From: Microbacterium pumilum
GTDB taxonomy: Bacteria > Actinomycetota > Actinomycetes > Actinomycetales > Microbacteriaceae
NCBI RefSeq assembly: GCF_039530225.1
Contig: NZ_BAAAOH010000001.1
Span: 1,550,001-1,614,000, forward strand
Direction of reading: 5' to 3'
Length of the DNA stretch: 64,000 nucleotides
Below the pieces are notes generated by a model that made no database searches, was not told where the DNA came from, and saw only the letters and a program-made list of their open reading frames with translations. The first letter of the stretch is position 1; every line of letters begins with the position of its first letter. Made by a program: the position numbers and the translations under genes. Of the stretch, positions 52,358 to 59,750 are shown piece after piece.

Positions 52358-53113
52358 TCAGTCGGCGGCCGGTCCGAACGCACGCGCGAACGCCCGCAGC
52401 AGCCGGGCCGGCTCGGTGACGGATGCCGCGAGCACCCTTGCGGCGATCGCGTCGTAGTCGTTCGCGGCGAAGTACCCGTCGTCTCGGTACACCGCCATGC
52501 GCTCGGTGAAGGCGGCTCCGGTGGGCTCGGGATGGAACTGCGTCGCGTAGAGGCGGTCACCGATGCGATAGGCCTGCACCGGGCACGCGTCGTTCCTCGC
52601 CAGCAGGGTGGCGTCCGGAGGCGGCTCACCCGCTCCCTCCTTGTGCGCCGTGAGGGCTGAGAAACGCGTCGCGAGCCCTCCGAAGAGCGGGTCGGACTGG
52701 CCGTCGGGGCTCAACTCGACCGTCACCGGGCCGGTGTTCTCCGGGTACGCACGGCTGACCTCGCCGCCGAGCATGCGGGTGACGATGCCGATGCCGTAGC
52801 ACGTGAAGATCGCCGCGGGCCCGGTCGAGCCCGACGACGGCGCCGCAGCCGCAGCGATGCGTTCGAGATCGGACTCGAGCCTGCGCTGCACCTCGGTCTT
52901 CGTCGACTCCGGATCCGAGACGTTGAAGGGGCTGCCGCCGATCAGGAATCCGCTGTACCGGTCGAACACGTCGTCCGGCAGCGGCTCGCGCACGAGGTCG
53001 AGCTGGGCCACCTGGTCCTCGGCGAGCTTCATGGCGTGGCGGAACGACTCGTACTCGGCCGCGGCCGCTCCTTTCTGCGGACGAACGCAGACGTAGAGCA
53101 GCGGCGCGGACAT
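52358..53113 (-). CDS. Class I glutamine amidotransferase-like protein
   Basis: 251 residues with the triad-like C105 (FTCYGIG), H194 and E196 (TQFHPEPT) of class I glutamine amidotransferases, plus the oxyanion-type LIGGSPFN segment. Stand-alone proteins of this type include gamma-glutamyl hydrolases and GMP-synthase-like amidotransferases of unknown acceptor. It is transcribed alone, convergent with the antiporter operon. Confidence 0.85.
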   Translation of the reverse strand: MSAPLLYVCVRPQKGAAAAEYESFRHAMKLAEDQVAQLDLVREPLPDDVFDRYSGFLIGGSPFNVSDPESTKTEVQRRLESDLERIAAAAAPSSGSTGPAAIFTCYGIGIVTRMLGGEVSRAYPENTGPVTVELSPDGQSDPLFGGLATRFSALTAHKEGAGEPPPDATLLARNDACPVQAYRIGDRLYATQFHPEPTGAAFTERMAVYRDDGYFAANDYDAIAARVLAASVTEPARLLRAFARAFGPAAD

Positions 53114-53119
53114 GGCGCG

Positions 53120-53125
53120 AGTCTA
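53120..53125 (-). promoter_or_regulatory. Leaderless-type -10 element for the amidotransferase gene
   Basis: On the minus strand TAGACT ends 6 nt before ATG 53113. Confidence 0.45.
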
Positions 53126-53237
53126 GGCGGGCTCCTCGGACGGCGCGAGCGTGTTCGACACGTGACGAGACCTCCGGCCGCGGGCGGCGCGGGCGCGGCA
53201 TCCGCTCGGCGAGGGGCGCTGCATCCGCTTGGCAGAC

Positions 53238-53294
53238 ATGTATCAGCGGGCACTATCGCTTCTCTGCTCAGTGTGGACACAATTGGCGCTATGA
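53238..53294 (+). CDS. Possible 18-residue leader peptide upstream of the sigma factor
   Basis: An 18-codon frame (MYQRALSLL...) starts at ATG 53238 and its stop overlaps the sigma factor start (ATGA at 53291-53294). If translated, it would couple entry into the sigma gene. The first 15 bases, ATGTATCAGCGGGCA, recur with two changes just after the CHAT gene (58787). No clear ribosome site precedes it, so this may be chance. Confidence 0.3.
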   Translation: MYQRALSLLCSVWTQLAL

Positions 53295-53908
53295 CGCATG
53301 CGGGCGGTGAGGCCACCGTCGACTCCGTCGAGCCCGCACGCTGGGAACGCGCCGCGGCGCTCTTCGTGCGCTGGCGCGAAGGCGAGTCCCGCGCCATGGA
53401 TGAGCTCGTGCGCCTCATGACGCCGCCGCTCTGGCACATCGTGCGGGCCTATGGGCTCGACGCGGCGCTCGCGCAGGATGTCGTGCAGACGACGTGGCTG
53501 ACGCTTGTGCGCCGGCACGAGTCGATCCTCGATCCGCAGGCGGTGTCGGGATGGCTCACGATGTGCGCACGCCGAGAGGCGTGGCGCGTCGGAAAGCTGC
53601 ATCGCCGGGCAGACGCGACTGATGTCGAGACGCTCGAGCCGCACCTGCCGGTGCAGGAATCCGCCGAGCAGACCGCCGCCACGGATGACGAGTCGCACCG
53701 CCTATGGGTGGCGGTGGGCACGCTCAACGAACGATGCCAGCGCCTGCTGCGGATCGTCGCGTTCGAGGAACGACCCGACTATGCGCGCATCGCGGAGGAT
53801 CTCGCGATGCCGATCGGGTCCATCGGGCCGACGCGCCAGCGCTGTCTCGCAAAGCTTCGCGCCGTACTCGAGGGCGCCGGATGGGGGAGTGATGACGATG
53901 GAGACTGA
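53291..53908 (+). CDS. ECF-like RNA polymerase sigma factor
   Basis: 205 residues from ATG 53291. Region 2 is visible at about residues 35-95 (SRAMDELVRLMTPPLWHIVRAYGLD..., DVVQTTWLTLVRR) and region 4 at about 140-200 (RCQRLLRIVAFEERPDYARIAEDLAMPIGSIGPTRQRCLAKLRAVL). It directs RNA polymerase to a small set of promoters, probably including its own. No zinc-type anti-sigma is encoded next to it. It heads the operon with an unknown protein, a subtilase and a CHAT protein, whose proteolysis could in turn control the sigma factor. Confidence 0.9.
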   Translation: MTHAGGEATVDSVEPARWERAAALFVRWREGESRAMDELVRLMTPPLWHIVRAYGLDAALAQDVVQTTWLTLVRRHESILDPQAVSGWLTMCARREAWRVGKLHRRADATDVETLEPHLPVQESAEQTAATDDESHRLWVAVGTLNERCQRLLRIVAFEERPDYARIAEDLAMPIGSIGPTRQRCLAKLRAVLEGAGWGSDDDGD

Positions 53909-54368
53909 GGACTTCGGCGCCGATGCGGCGCTGTTCGCGCGACTTCGCGCGGTGTGGGAGGAGGTCGATCCGGCACCGGCCGACCTCGTCGACCGGATGG
54001 TGGCCGCGGTCGCCGTCGAAGACCTCTCACGCGAGTACGCGATCCTGACGCTGGTGGAAGGATCGACGCTCACCGCTGTGCGCGGTGAGACCGATACGGC
54101 GACGCTGCAGTTCAGCGACGGCGAGACGAGCGTGCTCCTGCACGTGACGACCGCGGAGGGTGGGTCGCATCGGGTCGATGGGTGGGTGGATGCCGAGGCT
54201 CTCGCCATCCGCCTCATTCAGGGTGACCGCGATTGGTCGGCCGAGGCAGGGGCGCACGGGCGCTTCGCGTTCGAGGCCGTGCCCTCGGGCGTCTCGAGGA
54301 TGCGCATCGTCGTGCGCGGCGTGGATGGCGAGCTGCGTGAATTCCAGACTCCGCAGTTCGAGGTGTGA
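53892..54368 (+). CDS. Small protein between sigma factor and subtilase
   Basis: 158 residues from ATG 53892 (GGGGGAG upstream), overlapping the sigma factor end by 17 bp. The first 50 residues are acidic and helical (DAALFARLRAVWEEVDPAPADLVDRMVAAVAVEDL), like the sigma-binding end of some anti-sigma factors. The rest is strand-rich (LTLVEGS..., MRIVVRGVDGELREFQTPQFEV), like a small beta-sandwich. No membrane helix or zinc motif. A cytosolic anti-sigma or a protease substrate linking sigma to the proteases is the natural guess; unproven. Confidence 0.75.
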   Translation: MTMETEDFGADAALFARLRAVWEEVDPAPADLVDRMVAAVAVEDLSREYAILTLVEGSTLTAVRGETDTATLQFSDGETSVLLHVTTAEGGSHRVDGWVDAEALAIRLIQGDRDWSAEAGAHGRFAFEAVPSGVSRMRIVVRGVDGELREFQTPQFEV

Positions 54369-54428
54369 GAAGCGATCGGGCGTTGCGATCCTGTGGCGCG
54401 CTGGGTCCTGAGACGAAAGGCATGATCC

Positions 54429-56228
54429 GTGGCCGAAGAGCAGACATGGCGCGACCGAGAAGCGGCAGACGAATTCCGAGGGGTCGTGCTCGACCCGTCG
54501 CGGGATCCTGTCCCGGGTCTGCGCGCGTACACGACGGTCTACGCCCCCGGGCACCTGCTGATCTCCGGCGGCACAGACGATGCCGCGAGTGCGCTCAGAT
54601 CCGCGGGCGCCGAGCTCGGCTGGGATATCGAGTTCGAAACGGTCGGCAACCCTCAGCGAAACGGCGCTCCGCTCACCCGGGCGCGCATCATCCAGCTGCC
54701 GAGACCCGATCGTGACGACGAGCCGGTGCCCGTCGTCGATGCATGGCGCCTCCTGCAGCTGGCACGCAGAAAGGCACTGTTGGCCGACGTCGTCGGTCCG
54801 ATCGACGTGATCCGGCCCGCGAGGCCGAGACCGCGCGATGCAGCGGCACCGATCGGCGACCGACCGGACGTGGTCGCGGCACCCGTTGCCGACCGCCCCG
54901 AGGACGTCGCGATCGACGAGGACTCCGCGGCGAGGATCGCCAGCGCACGACGGGACATCGCGCTCGCCGCATCCGCGTCCGTCGATCGAATCAACCTCGG
55001 ACCGAAAAGGGAGGACCCGAGGTACCTGCGTCGGGAGGGCGATGCTCCTGCTCTTCGCGGGGTCGGGCTCGACCATGTGCTGACCGTCGATCCGATCGGG
55101 CTCAACCCGCACGGCCGCACCAATCCCCACGGCAGGACCAATCCTCACGGGCGTACCAATCCCTCCGGCACGGAGGGCTACGGATACCCCGGAACCGGGG
55201 GGCTCGAGATCGTGTCGTACGTCGGGCCCGCACCGGTGCGCACGCTGGGGTTGGCGGACAACGGCCGGCGCCCCGTGGTCGCGATCGTCGACACGGGATG
55301 CGGCATCCACGATCCCTGGCTTCCGGCGGAGACGGGGACGGACGACATCGTGCGTCGGCGCCTCGCGTCCCCCTCGGGTGTGGGCGTGGTCGGCATCGAG
55401 GACCCCAACACCGATCCCGAGGTCTACGGCGATCAGGCGGGGCCACGCGACGGCTTCCTCGACGATGCGGCCGGTCACGGCACATTCGTCGCGGGCATCA
55501 TCCGGCAGGTCTGCCCGGAGGCGGATCTCATCTCGGTCCGTGTGGCGGACAGCAACGGCAGCGTGCTCGAGAGCGAGCTGATCGTCGCCGTCGAGGAGCT
55601 GGCGGACTGGGTCGAAGGCGTCGGGGGCAACGCGCCCCAGCACCTCGACGTGCTGAACCTGTCGCTCGGCTACTACCACGAGACGCCCGAGGACGGCCGA
55701 TACAGCACGCGTCTGCACGAGGCGCTCTCGCGCCTGCGCGCCAAGGGATGCGTCGTCGTGTGCTCCGCGGGGAATGACGCCACCGACCGACCCACCTTCC
55801 CCGCCGCGCTGTGGCAGTGGGACGGCTCGGAGCTGAACCTCGATGAGCCCGATGGACTCGCCAGACACCTCGCCGTCGGAGCCCTGAATCCGCAGCGCAC
55901 GTCGGTGGCGCTGTACAGCAACATCGGAAAATGGGTCGGGTATTTCGCCCCGGGGACCTCGGTGCTGAGTTCCTTCCCTTCGCTCACCGGAGGCGTGCAG
56001 GCCGGGTCTCGGTTCGACCTCTACGGGCGCTGCCGCCAGGGCATCGATCCGGACGACTACACGGGCGGGTATGCCATCTGGAGCGGAACGTCCTTCGCCG
56101 CGCCGTTCGTCGCCGGCACGATCGCCAACGCGCTGGCGCCCTCCCTGATGGCCGCCGCGCCGAACCTGGTCGACCCGCTCGTGACCGCGCTCGCTGCAGT
56201 GGAGAGTATCGACCTCTCCAGGAACTGA
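54429..56228 (+). CDS. Cytosolic S8 (subtilisin-like) serine protease
   Basis: 599 residues from GTG 54429. The catalytic domain (about residues 280-590) has the full triad: D288 (VAIVDTG), H350 (GHGTFVAG), oxyanion N449 (SAGND) and S555 (SGTSFAAPFVAG). The first 200 residues are an unknown domain without signal peptide, so the enzyme should act inside the cell. Residues 226-244 hold three NPHGRT repeats just before the catalytic domain, a possible flexible or cleavable linker. 60-bp gaps separate it from both neighbours. The N-domain may bind the CHAT protein or the small protein. Confidence 0.9.
   Translation: MAEEQTWRDREAADEFRGVVLDPSRDPVPGLRAYTTVYAPGHLLISGGTDDAASALRSAGAELGWDIEFETVGNPQRNGAPLTRARIIQLPRPDRDDEPVPVVDAWRLLQLARRKALLADVVGPIDVIRPARPRPRDAAAPIGDRPDVVAAPVADRPEDVAIDEDSAARIASARRDIALAASASVDRINLGPKREDPRYLRREGDAPALRGVGLDHVLTVDPIGLNPHGRTNPHGRTNPHGRTNPSGTEGYGYPGTGGLEIVSYVGPAPVRTLGLADNGRRPVVAIVDTGCGIHDPWLPAETGTDDIVRRRLASPSGVGVVGIEDPNTDPEVYGDQAGPRDGFLDDAAGHGTFVAGIIRQVCPEADLISVRVADSNGSVLESELIVAVEELADWVEGVGGNAPQHLDVLNLSLGYYHETPEDGRYSTRLHEALSRLRAKGCVVVCSAGNDATDRPTFPAALWQWDGSELNLDEPDGLARHLAVGALNPQRTSVALYSNIGKWVGYFAPGTSVLSSFPSLTGGVQAGSRFDLYGRCRQGIDPDDYTGGYAIWSGTSFAAPFVAGTIANALAPSLMAAAPNLVDPLVTALAAVESIDLSRN
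55104..55164 (+). repeat. In-frame 18-bp repeat encoding NPHGRT units
   Basis: Three tandem 18-bp units plus a fourth partial encode NPHGRT three times and NPSGT. Silent third-base differences between units show that the peptide, not the DNA, is conserved. Confidence 0.8.
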
Positions 56229-56288
56229 TCGCGGGAGATCCCCGGCGGCGATCTCGCAGGTGGCCGCCGGGGAGGCCATCATTGCTGA

Positions 56289-58781
56289 ATGGCCAACCGC
56301 GCCGAAGGACTGTATCGCCGAGGCGTCGAGCTCGCCAACCGCGGGCGCTACGCGCAGGCCCAGCGGGCGCTCGCCGCAGCGCAGCGGGTGGCGTCGACGG
56401 CCGGCGATCCCGACCTGCTCGCACGGATCGAGGGCACCACAGCGTATGTGCTGGCGCGACTGGGCGACGTGGACGGCGGCGAACGGCTGTGCCTGGAGGC
56501 GATGGGTCGCGACGGTCTCTCGGCGGCGGCGATCGCTCAGCTCCAGGGCCAGCTCGGCGCGCTCGCACTGGAGAGAGGACTGCTGGATGACGCCGCCACC
56601 TGGCTGAGCAAGAGCATCCACGGGCTCGCGGGCGAACCGGTCAAAGAGGCGAACATGCGCATGAACCGCAGCCTCGTCGACATGCAGCGCGGACGGCTCA
56701 CCGAGGCCATGACCGACCTCGAGCTCGCCGAGGCGGCCTATCTCGAAGCAGGCCTTGTCGCCGAAGCCAATCAGGCGATCCACAATCGGGGATACACCTG
56801 GATGCTCTCGGGAGACCTGGTTCGTGCGCTGCAGATGATGCAGGCGGTGCGCGAGCCGCTCGACGAGGAGTCCGACATGTGGGCGGCCATCAACGAGCTC
56901 GACCATGCCGAGGTGCTGCGCGAGGCAGGACTCGTCACCGAGGCGGAGCGGATCCTCGAGAGCGTGTCGGTCGCCTTCGGCCGCCACCGCGCCCCGCGCG
57001 AGCGGGCCTCCTCCGACTACCACCTCGCGCGGTCGCTCCTCAGTCATGATCCGGTGCGCGCAGCGGTCGTCGCTGCGGCCTCTGCCAGGCGATTCCGGCG
57101 GCTCGGAAGCCACGGCTGGGCCGTGCGCGCCGAGGCCATCCAGCTGCGCGCACGGCTCGCGCTCGGTCGCGACGATCGCGCGGGCCAGTCGACCCAGGCA
57201 CCGGGGCGACTTCCTGCCGCCAGTCAGATCGCGGCTGTGGTCGACGAGCTGCGCGCGACGGGGTTCGCGCCCGAAGCCGATGCGCTTCACCTGACGGACC
57301 TGCTGGCGCGGATGCGGCGGCGGCTCCCGGTGACGGTCTCGCCGATGCAGGTGCGCGAGAGCACCCCCCTCGAGGTGGCGCTGCTGGTTCACGAGGTACG
57401 GGCCGCCGGCGCCGCGTCGCGCGCGCACGAAGGGCAGGTGCGCCGGCACGCCGCGCGAGGTCTCGACCTGCTCGAGCACACGCAGCTGGCCACGGGCAGC
57501 CTCGATCTGCAGGGTTCGTCGGCCATGCGCGGCTCGGGCCTCATCACCGCCGGCCTCTCGTCCGCAGTGCGGTCGAGGCAGCACGATGTCGTCTTCGACT
57601 GGTCCGAGAGGGCCAGGCTGATGAATCAGCAGATCATCCCGGTCCGGCCCTCTCCCGATCCGGCGCTGGCCGCGGACCTCGCCGAGCTTCGGGTCCTTCG
57701 TTCGGCCGAGCCAGACGGCGACTGGCTCGCAGGTCCACGTGCTGTCGTCCTGAGAGACCGCGCGCGCGAGCGACAGTGGTCGGCCACGACCGCGGGTGAG
57801 CTGCGCCGTCGTGCGAGTCTCGAGGAGGTGCGGGCCGCCCTCACGGCCGACGAAGCGCTCGTCTCGTATGTGTTCGACGGGCGGAGACTTGTTGCCCTCG
57901 GCGTCTCACTCACGCGCGTGGAGCTCGTCGACCTCGACTGGCGTGCGGTCCGGTCGGCGTTGGGCGGACTGCGCGCCGAACTCGATGTGTCGGCGGGTTT
58001 GACGACCGGGCCGATGGCCCGGGTGGTGCGCGCGAGCCTCGACGACCGCCTCGCGGCGCTCTCGTCGCTGCTCGTGTCTCCCCTCTGCTCCGTGCTCGAT
58101 GGGGCGGAACGCGTCGTCGTGACGGCCCCCGGAGTGCTCGCAGGACTGCCGTGGACGATGCTGCCGCCGCTCGTGGGGCGTCCCTTGACCCTGGCGTCAT
58201 CCGCGTCGGGATGGATGCGCGATCGACGACGCGGGTGGGCGAGGCCGAACGCGGCGGGTTTCGCGGTGGGGCCGCGTGTGGCGCGAGGAGAAGAGGAAGT
58301 GAGCGTCGCAGCATCCGCGTGGGGCGAGGCGACAGCGCTTCTCGGGGACGCGGCTTCCGTGGCGGCCGTCATCGGCGTGGCTTCGACCGTGGACGTGCTG
58401 CACATCGCGGCGCATGGTCGCCATGCCGTCGACAACCCGCTGTTCTCGGGGCTCGAGCTCGCCGACGGCGCGCTGTTCGGCTATGACATCGACCTGATGG
58501 AGTCTGTGCCTGACACCGTCGTGCTGTCGTCCTGTGAGGTCGGGCGGTCGTCGGTGCGGTGGGGGGAGGAGGCGATCGGCATGGCCCGCATCTGGCTTCA
58601 CGGCGGCGCTCGATGCGTGATCGCAGCGCCGGTGGTCGTCGCGGATGACGCCGCCTGCGAACTGCTCGGCGCCATGCACGAGGGGCTGGCGGCCGGCGCA
58701 GCGCCCGCGATCGCCCTCGCCGAGGCCGTGACACGGACCGGGGTCTCGTCGCCCTTCCAGGCGCACGGCGTCGGATTCTGA
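56289..58781 (+). CDS. TPR-CHAT caspase-like protein
   Basis: 830 residues. Residues about 1-330 are helical TPR-like repeats (GLYRRGVELANRGRYAQAQRALAAAQRVA and similar steps). Residues about 510-830 are a CHAT domain, a caspase-fold protease, with catalytic H709 in HIAAHGRHAVDNPLFSGLEL and C749 in VLSSCEVGRSS. Both residues are intact, so it should be an active cysteine protease. TPR-CHAT proteins act in bacterial immunity and cell death (Csx29, gasdermin-activating proteases). Here the partners are a sigma factor and a subtilase, and no gasdermin or CRISPR gene is seen. Last gene of the operon. Confidence 0.9.
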   Translation: MANRAEGLYRRGVELANRGRYAQAQRALAAAQRVASTAGDPDLLARIEGTTAYVLARLGDVDGGERLCLEAMGRDGLSAAAIAQLQGQLGALALERGLLDDAATWLSKSIHGLAGEPVKEANMRMNRSLVDMQRGRLTEAMTDLELAEAAYLEAGLVAEANQAIHNRGYTWMLSGDLVRALQMMQAVREPLDEESDMWAAINELDHAEVLREAGLVTEAERILESVSVAFGRHRAPRERASSDYHLARSLLSHDPVRAAVVAAASARRFRRLGSHGWAVRAEAIQLRARLALGRDDRAGQSTQAPGRLPAASQIAAVVDELRATGFAPEADALHLTDLLARMRRRLPVTVSPMQVRESTPLEVALLVHEVRAAGAASRAHEGQVRRHAARGLDLLEHTQLATGSLDLQGSSAMRGSGLITAGLSSAVRSRQHDVVFDWSERARLMNQQIIPVRPSPDPALAADLAELRVLRSAEPDGDWLAGPRAVVLRDRARERQWSATTAGELRRRASLEEVRAALTADEALVSYVFDGRRLVALGVSLTRVELVDLDWRAVRSALGGLRAELDVSAGLTTGPMARVVRASLDDRLAALSSLLVSPLCSVLDGAERVVVTAPGVLAGLPWTMLPPLVGRPLTLASSASGWMRDRRRGWARPNAAGFAVGPRVARGEEEVSVAASAWGEATALLGDAASVAAVIGVASTVDVLHIAAHGRHAVDNPLFSGLELADGALFGYDIDLMESVPDTVVLSSCEVGRSSVRWGEEAIGMARIWLHGGARCVIAAPVVVADDAACELLGAMHEGLAAGAAPAIALAEAVTRTGVSSPFQAHGVGF

Positions 58782-58922
58782 GACCGATGTATCAGGGAGC
58801 ATCGCATCCGCTCCTGCATTTCGGAACGTCTTTCGCGGCCCGCGATCGGGGAATCACGGGCACTGGGGGCGACAGGCTCTACGGGGGCGTGATCTGGACA
58901 CGGAGCCTCAGAGACGGAACCA

Positions 58923-58960
58923 CGGGGGATGTCGCCGGTATCGATCGGAGACATCCCCCG
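58923..58960 (+). terminator. Hairpin after the CHAT gene
   Basis: Perfect 11-bp arms CGGGGGATGTC and GACATCCCCCG with a 16-bp loop, 142 bp after the CHAT stop and 28 bp before the convergent LysR-like gene end. No U-tract follows; a likely end for the operon. Confidence 0.6.
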
Positions 58961-58988
58961 AACCGTCCCGCCCCGAATCCAGTCGGAG

Positions 58989-59750
58989 TCAGCGGGACGA
59001 ATTGGCGGTGCGCCCGCGCACGATGCCGACGAACGCCTCGACCGCGGGCGTCGTGCGTCCGGCTGGCCACGCCAGCGCCACGGTCGAGCCGGGCCCGTCG
59101 CGAAGCGGTCGGTGGTCGACATCCTTGCGACGGTGCAGCCGAGCCAGCGACATGGGCACGATCACCACGCCCACACCCGAGGCGACGATCGCGATGGCTT
59201 GCTCAGTGTCCTCGGGTGGGGAGAACGATGCCGCGACACCGCCGGGAACCAGGACGCCGAGCACATCGTCCTGCGGCACGATGACGATCTCGCCGGCCAG
59301 ATCGTCGAGACAGAGGTCGTCGGCGGCCATGAGGTGCGAGTCGACAGGCGCGATGACCACGGGCACTTCGTCGTACAGGGCGATGACGTGGAGGTCGTCT
59401 CTCGAGATGGGCAGCCGAACGAGTGCGGCACTGAGCTCGCCGTCGAGGACGGCGGCGCGCTGGCCGGCGACCGAGATCGGCCGCAGTTCGAGCGCGATGT
59501 CGGGCGTGCGCTCCTGCCACTCGTCGATCCACTTGCCTGGGGTCGCACCGGGGATCGCGCCGAGGATGAAGGGCCCTTCGATCACCGGGCTTTCATCGAG
59601 TGGCTCGACCGCCGGGCGGGCGTCGGACTTCTTGGCCGGCTTCGAGGGCTTCGCCCCCTTCGCGGGCTTGCCGGGGCGCTGGGCGCCGGCATTCCGTCGT
59701 GGACGAGCCGGCCCACCGCGCGAGCCGCGCGCACCCGGGGTCTTGGCCAT
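58989..59750 (-). CDS. LysR-type effector domain without DNA-binding domain
   Basis: 253 residues. Residues about 58-245 match the LysR substrate-binding fold (ILGAIPGATPGKWIDEWQERTPDIALELR, VPVVIAPVDSHLMA, IAIVASGVGVVIVPMSLARL). In place of the winged HTH is a 50-residue basic, proline/alanine/lysine-rich tail (RPRRNAGAQRPGKPAKGAKPSKPAKK). Such proteins occur in Microbacteriaceae; the tail could bind DNA or RNA without specificity. The start is supported by a leaderless-type -10. It may sense a small molecule without acting as a classical regulator. Confidence 0.8.
   Translation of the reverse strand: MAKTPGARGSRGGPARPRRNAGAQRPGKPAKGAKPSKPAKKSDARPAVEPLDESPVIEGPFILGAIPGATPGKWIDEWQERTPDIALELRPISVAGQRAAVLDGELSAALVRLPISRDDLHVIALYDEVPVVIAPVDSHLMAADDLCLDDLAGEIVIVPQDDVLGVLVPGGVAASFSPPEDTEQAIAIVASGVGVVIVPMSLARLHRRKDVDHRPLRDGPGSTVALAWPAGRTTPAVEAFVGIVRGRTANSSR

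What the first reader, a model, noticed from the sequence alone, without database searches (positions are those of the whole stretch)
53238..58960. Sigma factor - unknown - cytosolic subtilase - TPR-CHAT operon: a candidate two-protease signalling or conflict system
Four genes in one direction encode an ECF-like sigma factor, a 158-residue protein overlapping it, a subtilase with intact triad (D288/H350/S555) but no signal peptide, and a TPR-CHAT caspase-like protein with intact H709/C749. Two active intracellular proteases of different classes under a dedicated sigma factor are unlike ordinary housekeeping. Seen: motifs, order, 60-bp gaps, hairpin at the end. Known: CHAT proteases act in Csx29 and gasdermin systems by cutting a partner. 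Inferred: one protease activates the other or cuts the small protein to free the sigma factor, giving a damage or phage response, possibly ending in growth arrest.
Basis: partly seen in the sequence, partly recalled or inferred. Interest (0 to 1): 0.88.

Follow-up and report, generated by a model that had tools for sequence, protein, structure and literature searches.

The report
Two-protease switch with peptide array
A widespread actinobacterial gene cluster pairs a transcription switch with two proteases; one of them carries a string of identical short peptides whose sequence differs between species, and in Microbacterium the cluster often ends in a predicted small RNA.

Summary
The four genes are real, in the stated order, with intact catalytic residues. 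The association is not new: a review gives it as the context of sigma group ECF54 and proposes proteolytic control. Three features were not found in the papers I could search. (1) Before its catalytic domain the subtilase carries a tandem array of identical 5-8-residue units (NPHGRT x3 here; NPFTKT, NPYGST, NPVWDG elsewhere). Neighbouring copies differ at 1098 codons silently and 26 with amino-acid change, so selection keeps them alike, although units differ between species. (2) The promoter-like element before sigma recurs after CHAT in 68 of 102 loci, in Microbacterium before a folded, covarying ~145-nt stretch without Rfam match. (3) Some Nocardioides loci have a small gene there, with two remote chagasin-like relatives. 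Best reading: a self-amplifying sigma switch running a protease pair, the array being a cognate docking or cleavage string, probably for TPR-CHAT. Partner, trigger and outcome are inferred.

The parts
53239..53264 (+). promoter-like element P1 (TGTATCAG - 15 nt - CTC) before the sigma gene
   Evidence: GTATCA in 108 of 130 non-redundant upstream regions; the C, T and C of the second box are kept in 89, 82 and 82% of those aligned; position
53291..53908 (+). ECF-like sigma factor, 205 aa
   Evidence: PF04542 1.1e-7, TIGR02937 4.4e-14
53892..54368 (+). small protein, 158 aa, conserved N-terminal DPxPxxL segment and RxDGW and GRF motifs; weak CarboxypepD_reg likeness
   Evidence: alignment A1; 6 of 17 members match PF13620 weakly, best 0.0021, the window protein itself not
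54429..56228 (+). subtilase, 599 aa, D288/H350/S555, with about 225 residues before the array
   Evidence: PF00082 1.1e-27; triad conserved
55104..55157 (+). tandem array NPHGRT x3 inside the subtilase (residues 226-243)
   Evidence: the unit is encoded nowhere else in the genome (3 of 3 matches)
56289..58781 (+). TPR-CHAT caspase-like protein, 830 aa, H709/C749
   Evidence: PF12770 3.3e-22; residues conserved
58788..58813 (+). promoter-like element P2, same pattern as P1, just after the CHAT stop
   Evidence: 68 of 102 non-redundant loci have GTATCA within 200 nt of the last sense codon of CHAT; two control words 1 of 102 each; position
58815..58959 (+). predicted small structured RNA
   Evidence: RNA model R1 match 101.9 bits, though the window sequence was in the model; fold z -5.2 for 58818-58962; covariation; no Rfam match
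58924..58959 (+). terminator-like hairpin closing the RNA
   Evidence: 11 pairs formed in 99.6% of cells over 22 sequences

Best explanation
An autoregulated ECF54-type sigma switch that controls a pair of intracellular proteases. Shown by sequence: conserved cluster, intact catalytic residues, the same promoter-like element before sigma and after CHAT, an array of identical short peptides between the subtilase's N-terminal region and catalytic domain, and in Microbacterium a structured RNA candidate after the second element. Inferred: the small protein, encoded overlapping sigma and found beside it even where no protease genes were recognised nearby, holds or tunes sigma. The array is a multivalent docking or cleavage string for a cognate partner, most likely the operon's own TPR-CHAT protease; binding or cutting there frees the subtilase from its N-terminal region, or brings the two enzymes together. 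The active proteases remove the brake on sigma, which transcribes its own operon and the RNA: a positive loop. Inhibitor-like proteins near the cluster in some Nocardioides could limit it.
For: Linkage: 121 of 126. Array: of 174 subtilase ORFs scoring 250 bits or more, 163 got a 6- or 7-residue array call (143 non-redundant; two of them with only two copies), 8 have 5- or 8-residue arrays by eye, and only 3 truncated ORFs show none. Copies kept identical: amino-acid-changing fraction of differing codons 0.023, against 0.789 expected without selection and 0.61 in the catalytic domain between species at similar silent divergence. Within 90 Microbacterium-like sets, unit distance goes with CHAT-protein residues 5-110 (r 0.142, 1 of 500 permutations) and the catalytic-Cys segment 721-790 (r 0.17, 0 of 500) beyond the rest of that protein and the subtilase catalytic domain. 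Promoter-like elements. RNA covariation. Sigma and small protein without recognised protease genes in 8 of 34 regions. Inhibitor-like relatives.
Against: No binding, cleavage or expression is shown. The covariation is weak and its permutations ignore phylogeny. The cross-genus TPR signal (0.26-0.32) falls to 0.073 within Microbacterium (34 of 1000 permutations as high), where the CHAT domain gives 0.10 and the subtilase catalytic domain 0.193. For unit positions 4-5 alone the catalytic domain (0.185) also beats TPR (0.107), the small protein has a signal too (0.17), and the flank next to the array scores 0.256, as linkage alone would give. If CHAT cut the array, a conserved cut residue might be expected, but position 5 holds R, K, S, D, E, H, A, G and others. 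The structure jobs never returned. Distant subtilases beside sigma and small protein (L117-L121, L123, L124, L144) show no exact array.
Confidence: 0.35

Rival explanations
1. The published reading: the operon proteases degrade or process the ECF54 sigma factor itself (no anti-sigma factor); the array plays no specific part.
For: Review PMC8999054 reports this proposal for ECF54 from gene context (passage); linkage confirmed here.
Against: Does not account for an array kept identical by selection, nor for sigma and small protein together without recognised protease genes nearby in 8 of 34 regions.
Confidence: 0.2
2. The array is a spacer or a regular structural element between the N-terminal region and the catalytic domain.
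For: It sits between domains, contains proline in nearly all units and varies in copy number (2-11 as called).
Against: A spacer does not need copies identical to one another at positions that vary between species; nonsynonymous fraction 0.023 against 0.61 for the domain itself. Unit length also differs (5, 6, 7 or 8) while staying constant within an array.
Confidence: 0.2
3. The array is a multi-copy precursor of a short peptide signal, released by the subtilase and sensed by the TPR part of the CHAT protein.
For: Identical 5-8-residue copies, three or more exact ones in 136 of 143, with more constrained ends (N/H-P-aromatic ... T/S/G) and a variable middle; TPR signal across genera and a weak one within Microbacterium. 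Resemblance to peptide-precursor repeats and to TPR peptide receptors is recalled, not tested.
Against: No signal peptide apparent; no exporter or importer was looked for or noticed in the cluster; units abut without constant processing sites; whole-TPR signal weak within Microbacterium.
Confidence: 0.12
4. A phage-defence or cell-death system in which the protease pair kills or arrests the cell.
For: Two intracellular proteases; a TPR-CHAT protease acts in CRISPR type III-E (passages); patchy presence (137 of 247 Microbacterium genomes).
Against: No specific PADLOC match; no relative confirmed in viral contigs; the unit does not evolve faster than the catalytic domain.
Confidence: 0.1

Closest known systems
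ECF54 sigma group context (review PMC8999054, passages; its refs 7 and 47 not held)
   Same: ECF sigma group with carboxypeptidase, subtilase and CHAT domain proteins in its gene context
   Different: The passages seen mention no array, no RNA, no repeated promoter element and no inhibitor gene; they assume no anti-sigma factor
Csx29-Csx30-CASP-sigma of CRISPR type III-E (PMC10028731, passages)
   Different: No CRISPR effector match among the four operon proteins; a subtilase with an array instead; small protein of 158 aa against Csx30 with residues numbered to at least 565; no chain named Csx29 among the 60 shown of 86 PDB matches
S8 subtilases such as mycosin, intracellular serine proteases and lanthipeptide leader proteases (CylA, EpiP)
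   Same: Catalytic domain and triad; TIGR03921 5.9e-25, PDB 9ekq 2e-13
   Different: Below the mycosin cut-off (88 against 279 bits); no signal peptide apparent; array
EACC2/caspase systems with ECF sigma and TPR genes (PMC8195603, passages)
   Different: Different domains (EACC2, DUF1822); the words subtilase and subtilisin do not occur in the paper

Membership tests
ECF54 sigma group | ECF-type sigma-70 sequence | tested here: met
   Sigma70_r2 1.1e-7; TIGR02937 4.4e-14 over residues 35-191
ECF54 sigma group | conserved subtilase, CHAT and carboxypeptidase-type neighbours | tested here: met
   121 of 126 hold all four; the carboxypeptidase-type likeness is only weak, 6 of 17 members
ECF54 sigma group | match to the ECF54 group model or its reference sigma | not testable with these tools
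   group models and the reclassification paper not held
Csx29/Csx30/CASP-sigma | TPR-CHAT with His-Cys dyad beside an ECF sigma | tested here: met
Csx29/Csx30/CASP-sigma | linked Cas7-11 effector | tested here: inconclusive
   the four operon proteins have no such match; the rest of the window was not scanned against families
Csx29/Csx30/CASP-sigma | small protein inhibits the sigma and is cut by CHAT | not testable with these tools
   needs biochemistry
Tandem peptide-signal precursor | identical short copies under selection for identity | tested here: met
   1098 synonymous, 26 nonsynonymous codon differences; 0.023 against 0.61 in the control
Tandem peptide-signal precursor | constant processing sites between copies | tested here: not met
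   units abut with no constant spacer
Tandem peptide-signal precursor | export of the peptide | not tested
   no signal peptide apparent by eye; no predictor run and no exporter sought
Described RNA family (Rfam 15) | match to a covariance model | tested here: not met
   0 matches up to E 1 in 52800-59300

The most novel reading that the evidence does not exclude
A bacterial protease carries its own multi-copy peptide ligand: a string of identical, lineage-specific 5-8-residue units embedded in a subtilase, read by the TPR groove of a caspase-like partner. This would be a self-contained intracellular peptide code that licenses a two-protease, sigma-driven switch.
Probability: 0.15. Interest if true: 0.9.

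Novelty: new variant of a known kind. Interest (0 to 1): 0.72.

Why it matters
It turns a general published idea (ECF54 sigma factors controlled by proteolysis) into a testable circuit with named parts: promoter-like elements, a probable sigma partner, two proteases, a candidate substrate or ligand string, an RNA candidate and inhibitor-like proteins. Repeats held identical by selection within a protein yet different between species point to cognate recognition. If CHAT reads the array, it would give a recognition code between two proteases and a bacterial example of a cascade crossing protease classes.

Tried and rejected
Partner of the array by covariation: the first result (TPR partial r 0.30-0.32 over 71 sets; 0.26 over 123) looked decisive, but the top columns mostly split Microbacterium from the rest, and within 90 Microbacterium-like sets the TPR value fell to 0.073. 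Only the region test (9 regions) leaves a weak TPR and Cys-segment signal.

Regulon beyond the operon: ATGTATCAG occurs 13 times in the genome against 1 for the reversed control, but the two-part pattern gives 11 against 5. Over 18 system-bearing genomes the stricter pattern gives 56 hits against 36 controls, 24 of the 56 lying in or next to the operon by my reading of the positions; elsewhere 32 against 36 is no excess. The 17 genomes without the system give 13 against 17 (sums mine). So I do not claim other targets.

Hyper-variability of the unit: rejected; in each distance band its mean change is about equal to or below that of the catalytic domain.

Array as pure DNA homogenisation: rejected because copies differ silently about as much as genes of different species do.

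Array elsewhere in the genome: none. Viral relatives: none confirmed among 13 pattern matches. Rfam: none.

Rows dropped: pair analyses used only period-6 arrays with long CHAT matches (71 of 87 sets; 123 of 130; 90 of those 123); the array tally used subtilase hits of at least 250 bits; the RNA model was built from 22 of the 41 stretches cut, and 27 further stretches, among them Nocardioides ones that encode a protein, had no recognised closing hairpin and were left out.
Full report
Observation. The window is a 64-kb piece of a 4.45-Mb single-contig genome; its near relatives are Microbacterium. On the + strand lie an ECF-like sigma factor (53291-53908), a 158-residue protein overlapping it by 17 nt (53892-54368), a subtilase (54429-56228) and a TPR-CHAT protein (56289-58781).

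Conserved linkage. From one scan of species genomes, 78 loci encode a relative of the subtilase. Over these plus 3 stretches of the own genome, models of the four proteins hit 75 (sigma), 75 (small), 81 (subtilase) and 78 (CHAT) of 81 loci, in most of them in the order sigma-small-subtilase-CHAT by my reading; exceptions are L036, L081, L022 and loci cut by contig ends. In a larger set, 121 of 126 non-redundant array-bearing subtilases have sigma, small protein and CHAT in the same fetched stretch (sigma 123, small 123, CHAT 125); these stretches were found by searching for cluster genes, so the figure measures linkage, not frequency. The small-protein model finds a match in 35 of 396 genomes sampled over the phylum, the CHAT model at E 1e-60 or better in 137 of 247 Microbacterium genomes: widespread but dispensable.

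What was known. A review says that for sigma group ECF54 the use of proteolytic enzymes without an anti-sigma factor has been proposed, because of conserved neighbours with carboxypeptidase, subtilase and CHAT domains (PMC8999054, passages). The two sources it cites are not held. It was the only paper found with the words ECF54 and sigma factor. A search for papers with at least three of subtilase, tandem repeat, hexapeptide and CHAT domain found none; other searches are. The association is therefore in print; the parts below were not found in these searches of an open-access library.

The array. Subtilases of this subfamily carry a tandem array between their N-terminal region and catalytic domain. 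Of 174 ORFs scoring 250 bits or more, 163 got a 6- or 7-residue array call (two with only two copies), 8 have 5- or 8-residue units by eye, and 3, truncated, show none. Of the 143 non-redundant calls, 131 have at least three exact copies of a hexamer, 5 of a heptamer, and 7 are imperfect or short. There are 64 different units: first residue mostly N or H, then P, then mostly F or Y, a variable middle, and mostly T, S or G at the end. More distant pieces also show arrays (ANPAYQ x7 in L112, NPAYQG x3 in L135), whereas the distant subtilases of L117-L121, L123, L124 and L144 show no exact array. In the window's genome the unit NPHGRT is encoded only in the array.

Selection. Neighbouring copies differ at 1098 codons silently and at 26 with an amino-acid change, 1850 being the same. 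Random single changes in these codons would be amino-acid-changing in 79% of cases; observed 2.3%. As a control, catalytic-domain codons between Microbacterium species with about the same silent divergence differ with an amino-acid change in 61% of differing codons (bin 0.4, 1541 of 2500 pairs; the bin below, 162 pairs, gives 49.5%; arrays lie at 0.372). Slippage alone would erase silent differences too. So each protein is selected to keep its copies alike, although between species the unit changes, about as fast as or more slowly than the catalytic domain. Recognition by a cognate partner would give this.

Which partner. Across genera, unit distance goes best with the TPR region after allowing for sigma, subtilase and CHAT domain (0.26-0.32); the small protein has a lesser signal (0.17), and for unit positions 4-5 alone the catalytic domain leads (0.185 against 0.107). 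This is confounded by the genus split: within 90 Microbacterium-like sets TPR gives 0.073, the CHAT domain 0.10 and the subtilase catalytic domain 0.193. Dividing the CHAT protein into nine regions, residues 5-110 (0.142, 1 of 500) and 721-790 around the catalytic Cys (0.17, 0 of 500) stand out; scored as same or different unit, 5-110, 111-220, 221-330 and 721-790 each exceed all 500 permutations. The subtilase flank next to the array gives 0.256, as linkage would. I take TPR-CHAT as the likeliest partner, with low confidence. A separate hint: among pairs with sigma distance below 0.2, those with different units (100) have more divergent subtilase and CHAT proteins than those with the same unit (22), for example catalytic domain 0.379 against 0.162, while sigma (0.134, 0.121) and small protein (0.181, 0.156) are about equally close. 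Subtilase and CHAT behave as a cassette.

Promoters and RNA. GTATCA, with a CTC box at near-fixed spacing, precedes sigma in 108 of 130 non-redundant loci. GTATCA also lies within 200 nt of the last sense codon of CHAT in 68 of 102, at 20-22 nt in 38 of these; the reverse complement and the reversed word occur in 1 each. In 17 of 18 system-bearing genomes the pattern TGTATCAGN{15,16}CTC has a hit in or beside the operon by my reading of the positions. In 41 loci the second element is followed by a stretch of 132-163 nt ending in a recognised hairpin. Their mean folding z-score is -3.67, 38 of 41 below -2 (the closing hairpin contributes). On 22 of them the consensus structure has 64 cells with changes on both sides against 25.4 in shuffles, and a covariation score of 0.350 against 0.170; sliding the partners gives 0.074-0.122 (the structure was derived from the same alignment). 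Rfam has no match. The RNA model finds 45 matches in 92 sources, 37 on the operon strand and 8 on the other (model members included). In whole genomes it finds one copy in the own genome, strong matches (E 2e-4 or better) in 7 of 18 genomes with the system, and none that strong in 17 without (two weak ones there). Transcription itself is not shown.

Inhibitor-like gene. In Nocardioides-type loci a small gene often follows CHAT. A model of it hits 14 loci; in 12 it starts 50-183 nt after the CHAT gene, in two others 1.2 and 2.4 kb after; the GTATCA element was recorded before it in 8 of the 14. The two weakest hits, L080 and L061, match the chagasin family of peptidase inhibitors above the curated cut-off (6.5e-15, 4.9e-8), but the element was not recorded there; the members from L064, L069 and L048 do not match it. 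The inhibitor reading for the whole group is therefore an inference.

Mechanism. I commit to a self-amplifying sigma switch with two proteases in which the array is the cognate docking or cleavage string, probably for TPR-CHAT. The small protein is the likeliest direct partner of sigma, since both occur together without recognised subtilase or CHAT genes in 8 of 34 fetched regions (L132, L134, L139-L143, L145); some of these end at contig ends, and the few neighbours scanned showed no such protease. Csx29-Csx30-CASP-sigma is a precedent for a TPR-CHAT protease relieving inhibition of an ECF sigma factor (PMC10028731, passages); it works like this model, but membership is not claimed. Trigger and output are unknown to me; phage defence is possible but not favoured.

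Limits. Everything rests on sequence. Structure predictions did not return. Subcellular location was judged by eye. Permutation tests do not correct for phylogeny.

Noticed in passing
58788-58959: Second copy of the sigma promoter-like element and a covarying, Rfam-negative small RNA candidate with G-rich runs right after the CHAT gene; single match in the genome.
   Followed up: partly
L048, L049, L052, L054, L055, L061, L063, L064, L066, L069-L072, L080: Nocardioides-type loci carry a small gene after CHAT; its two most remote relatives (L061, L080) are chagasin-family (I42) peptidase inhibitors by Pfam.
   Followed up: partly
L128, L129: Two array-bearing subtilases with different units (HPLYDG or HPMYDG, and PFTSGG), each near a small-protein and a CHAT gene, stand in one cluster with one sigma gene.
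   Followed up: no
L014:6283-9581: Two subtilases in tandem with different units (NPFTRT, then NPFGKT) before one CHAT gene.
   Followed up: no
L132, L134, L139-L143, L145: Sigma and small protein together without recognised subtilase or CHAT nearby, in more distant actinobacterial genomes; these may be the core of the switch.
   Followed up: partly
L261:946-10807; L262:2636-5425; L260:2621-4798: Candidate promoter-like sites in the own genome lie before a Tc-toxin-A-like gene pair, a tyrosinase-VWA gene and another subtilase gene; counts over genomes do not exceed controls, so not claimed as targets.
   Followed up: partly
L036:7932-13404: Sigma and small protein lie inverted downstream of subtilase and CHAT, yet the cluster stays together.
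   Followed up: no
L081:3421-9530: A Microbacterium copy of the cluster looks decayed, with sigma, CHAT and subtilase reading frames in pieces.
   Followed up: no
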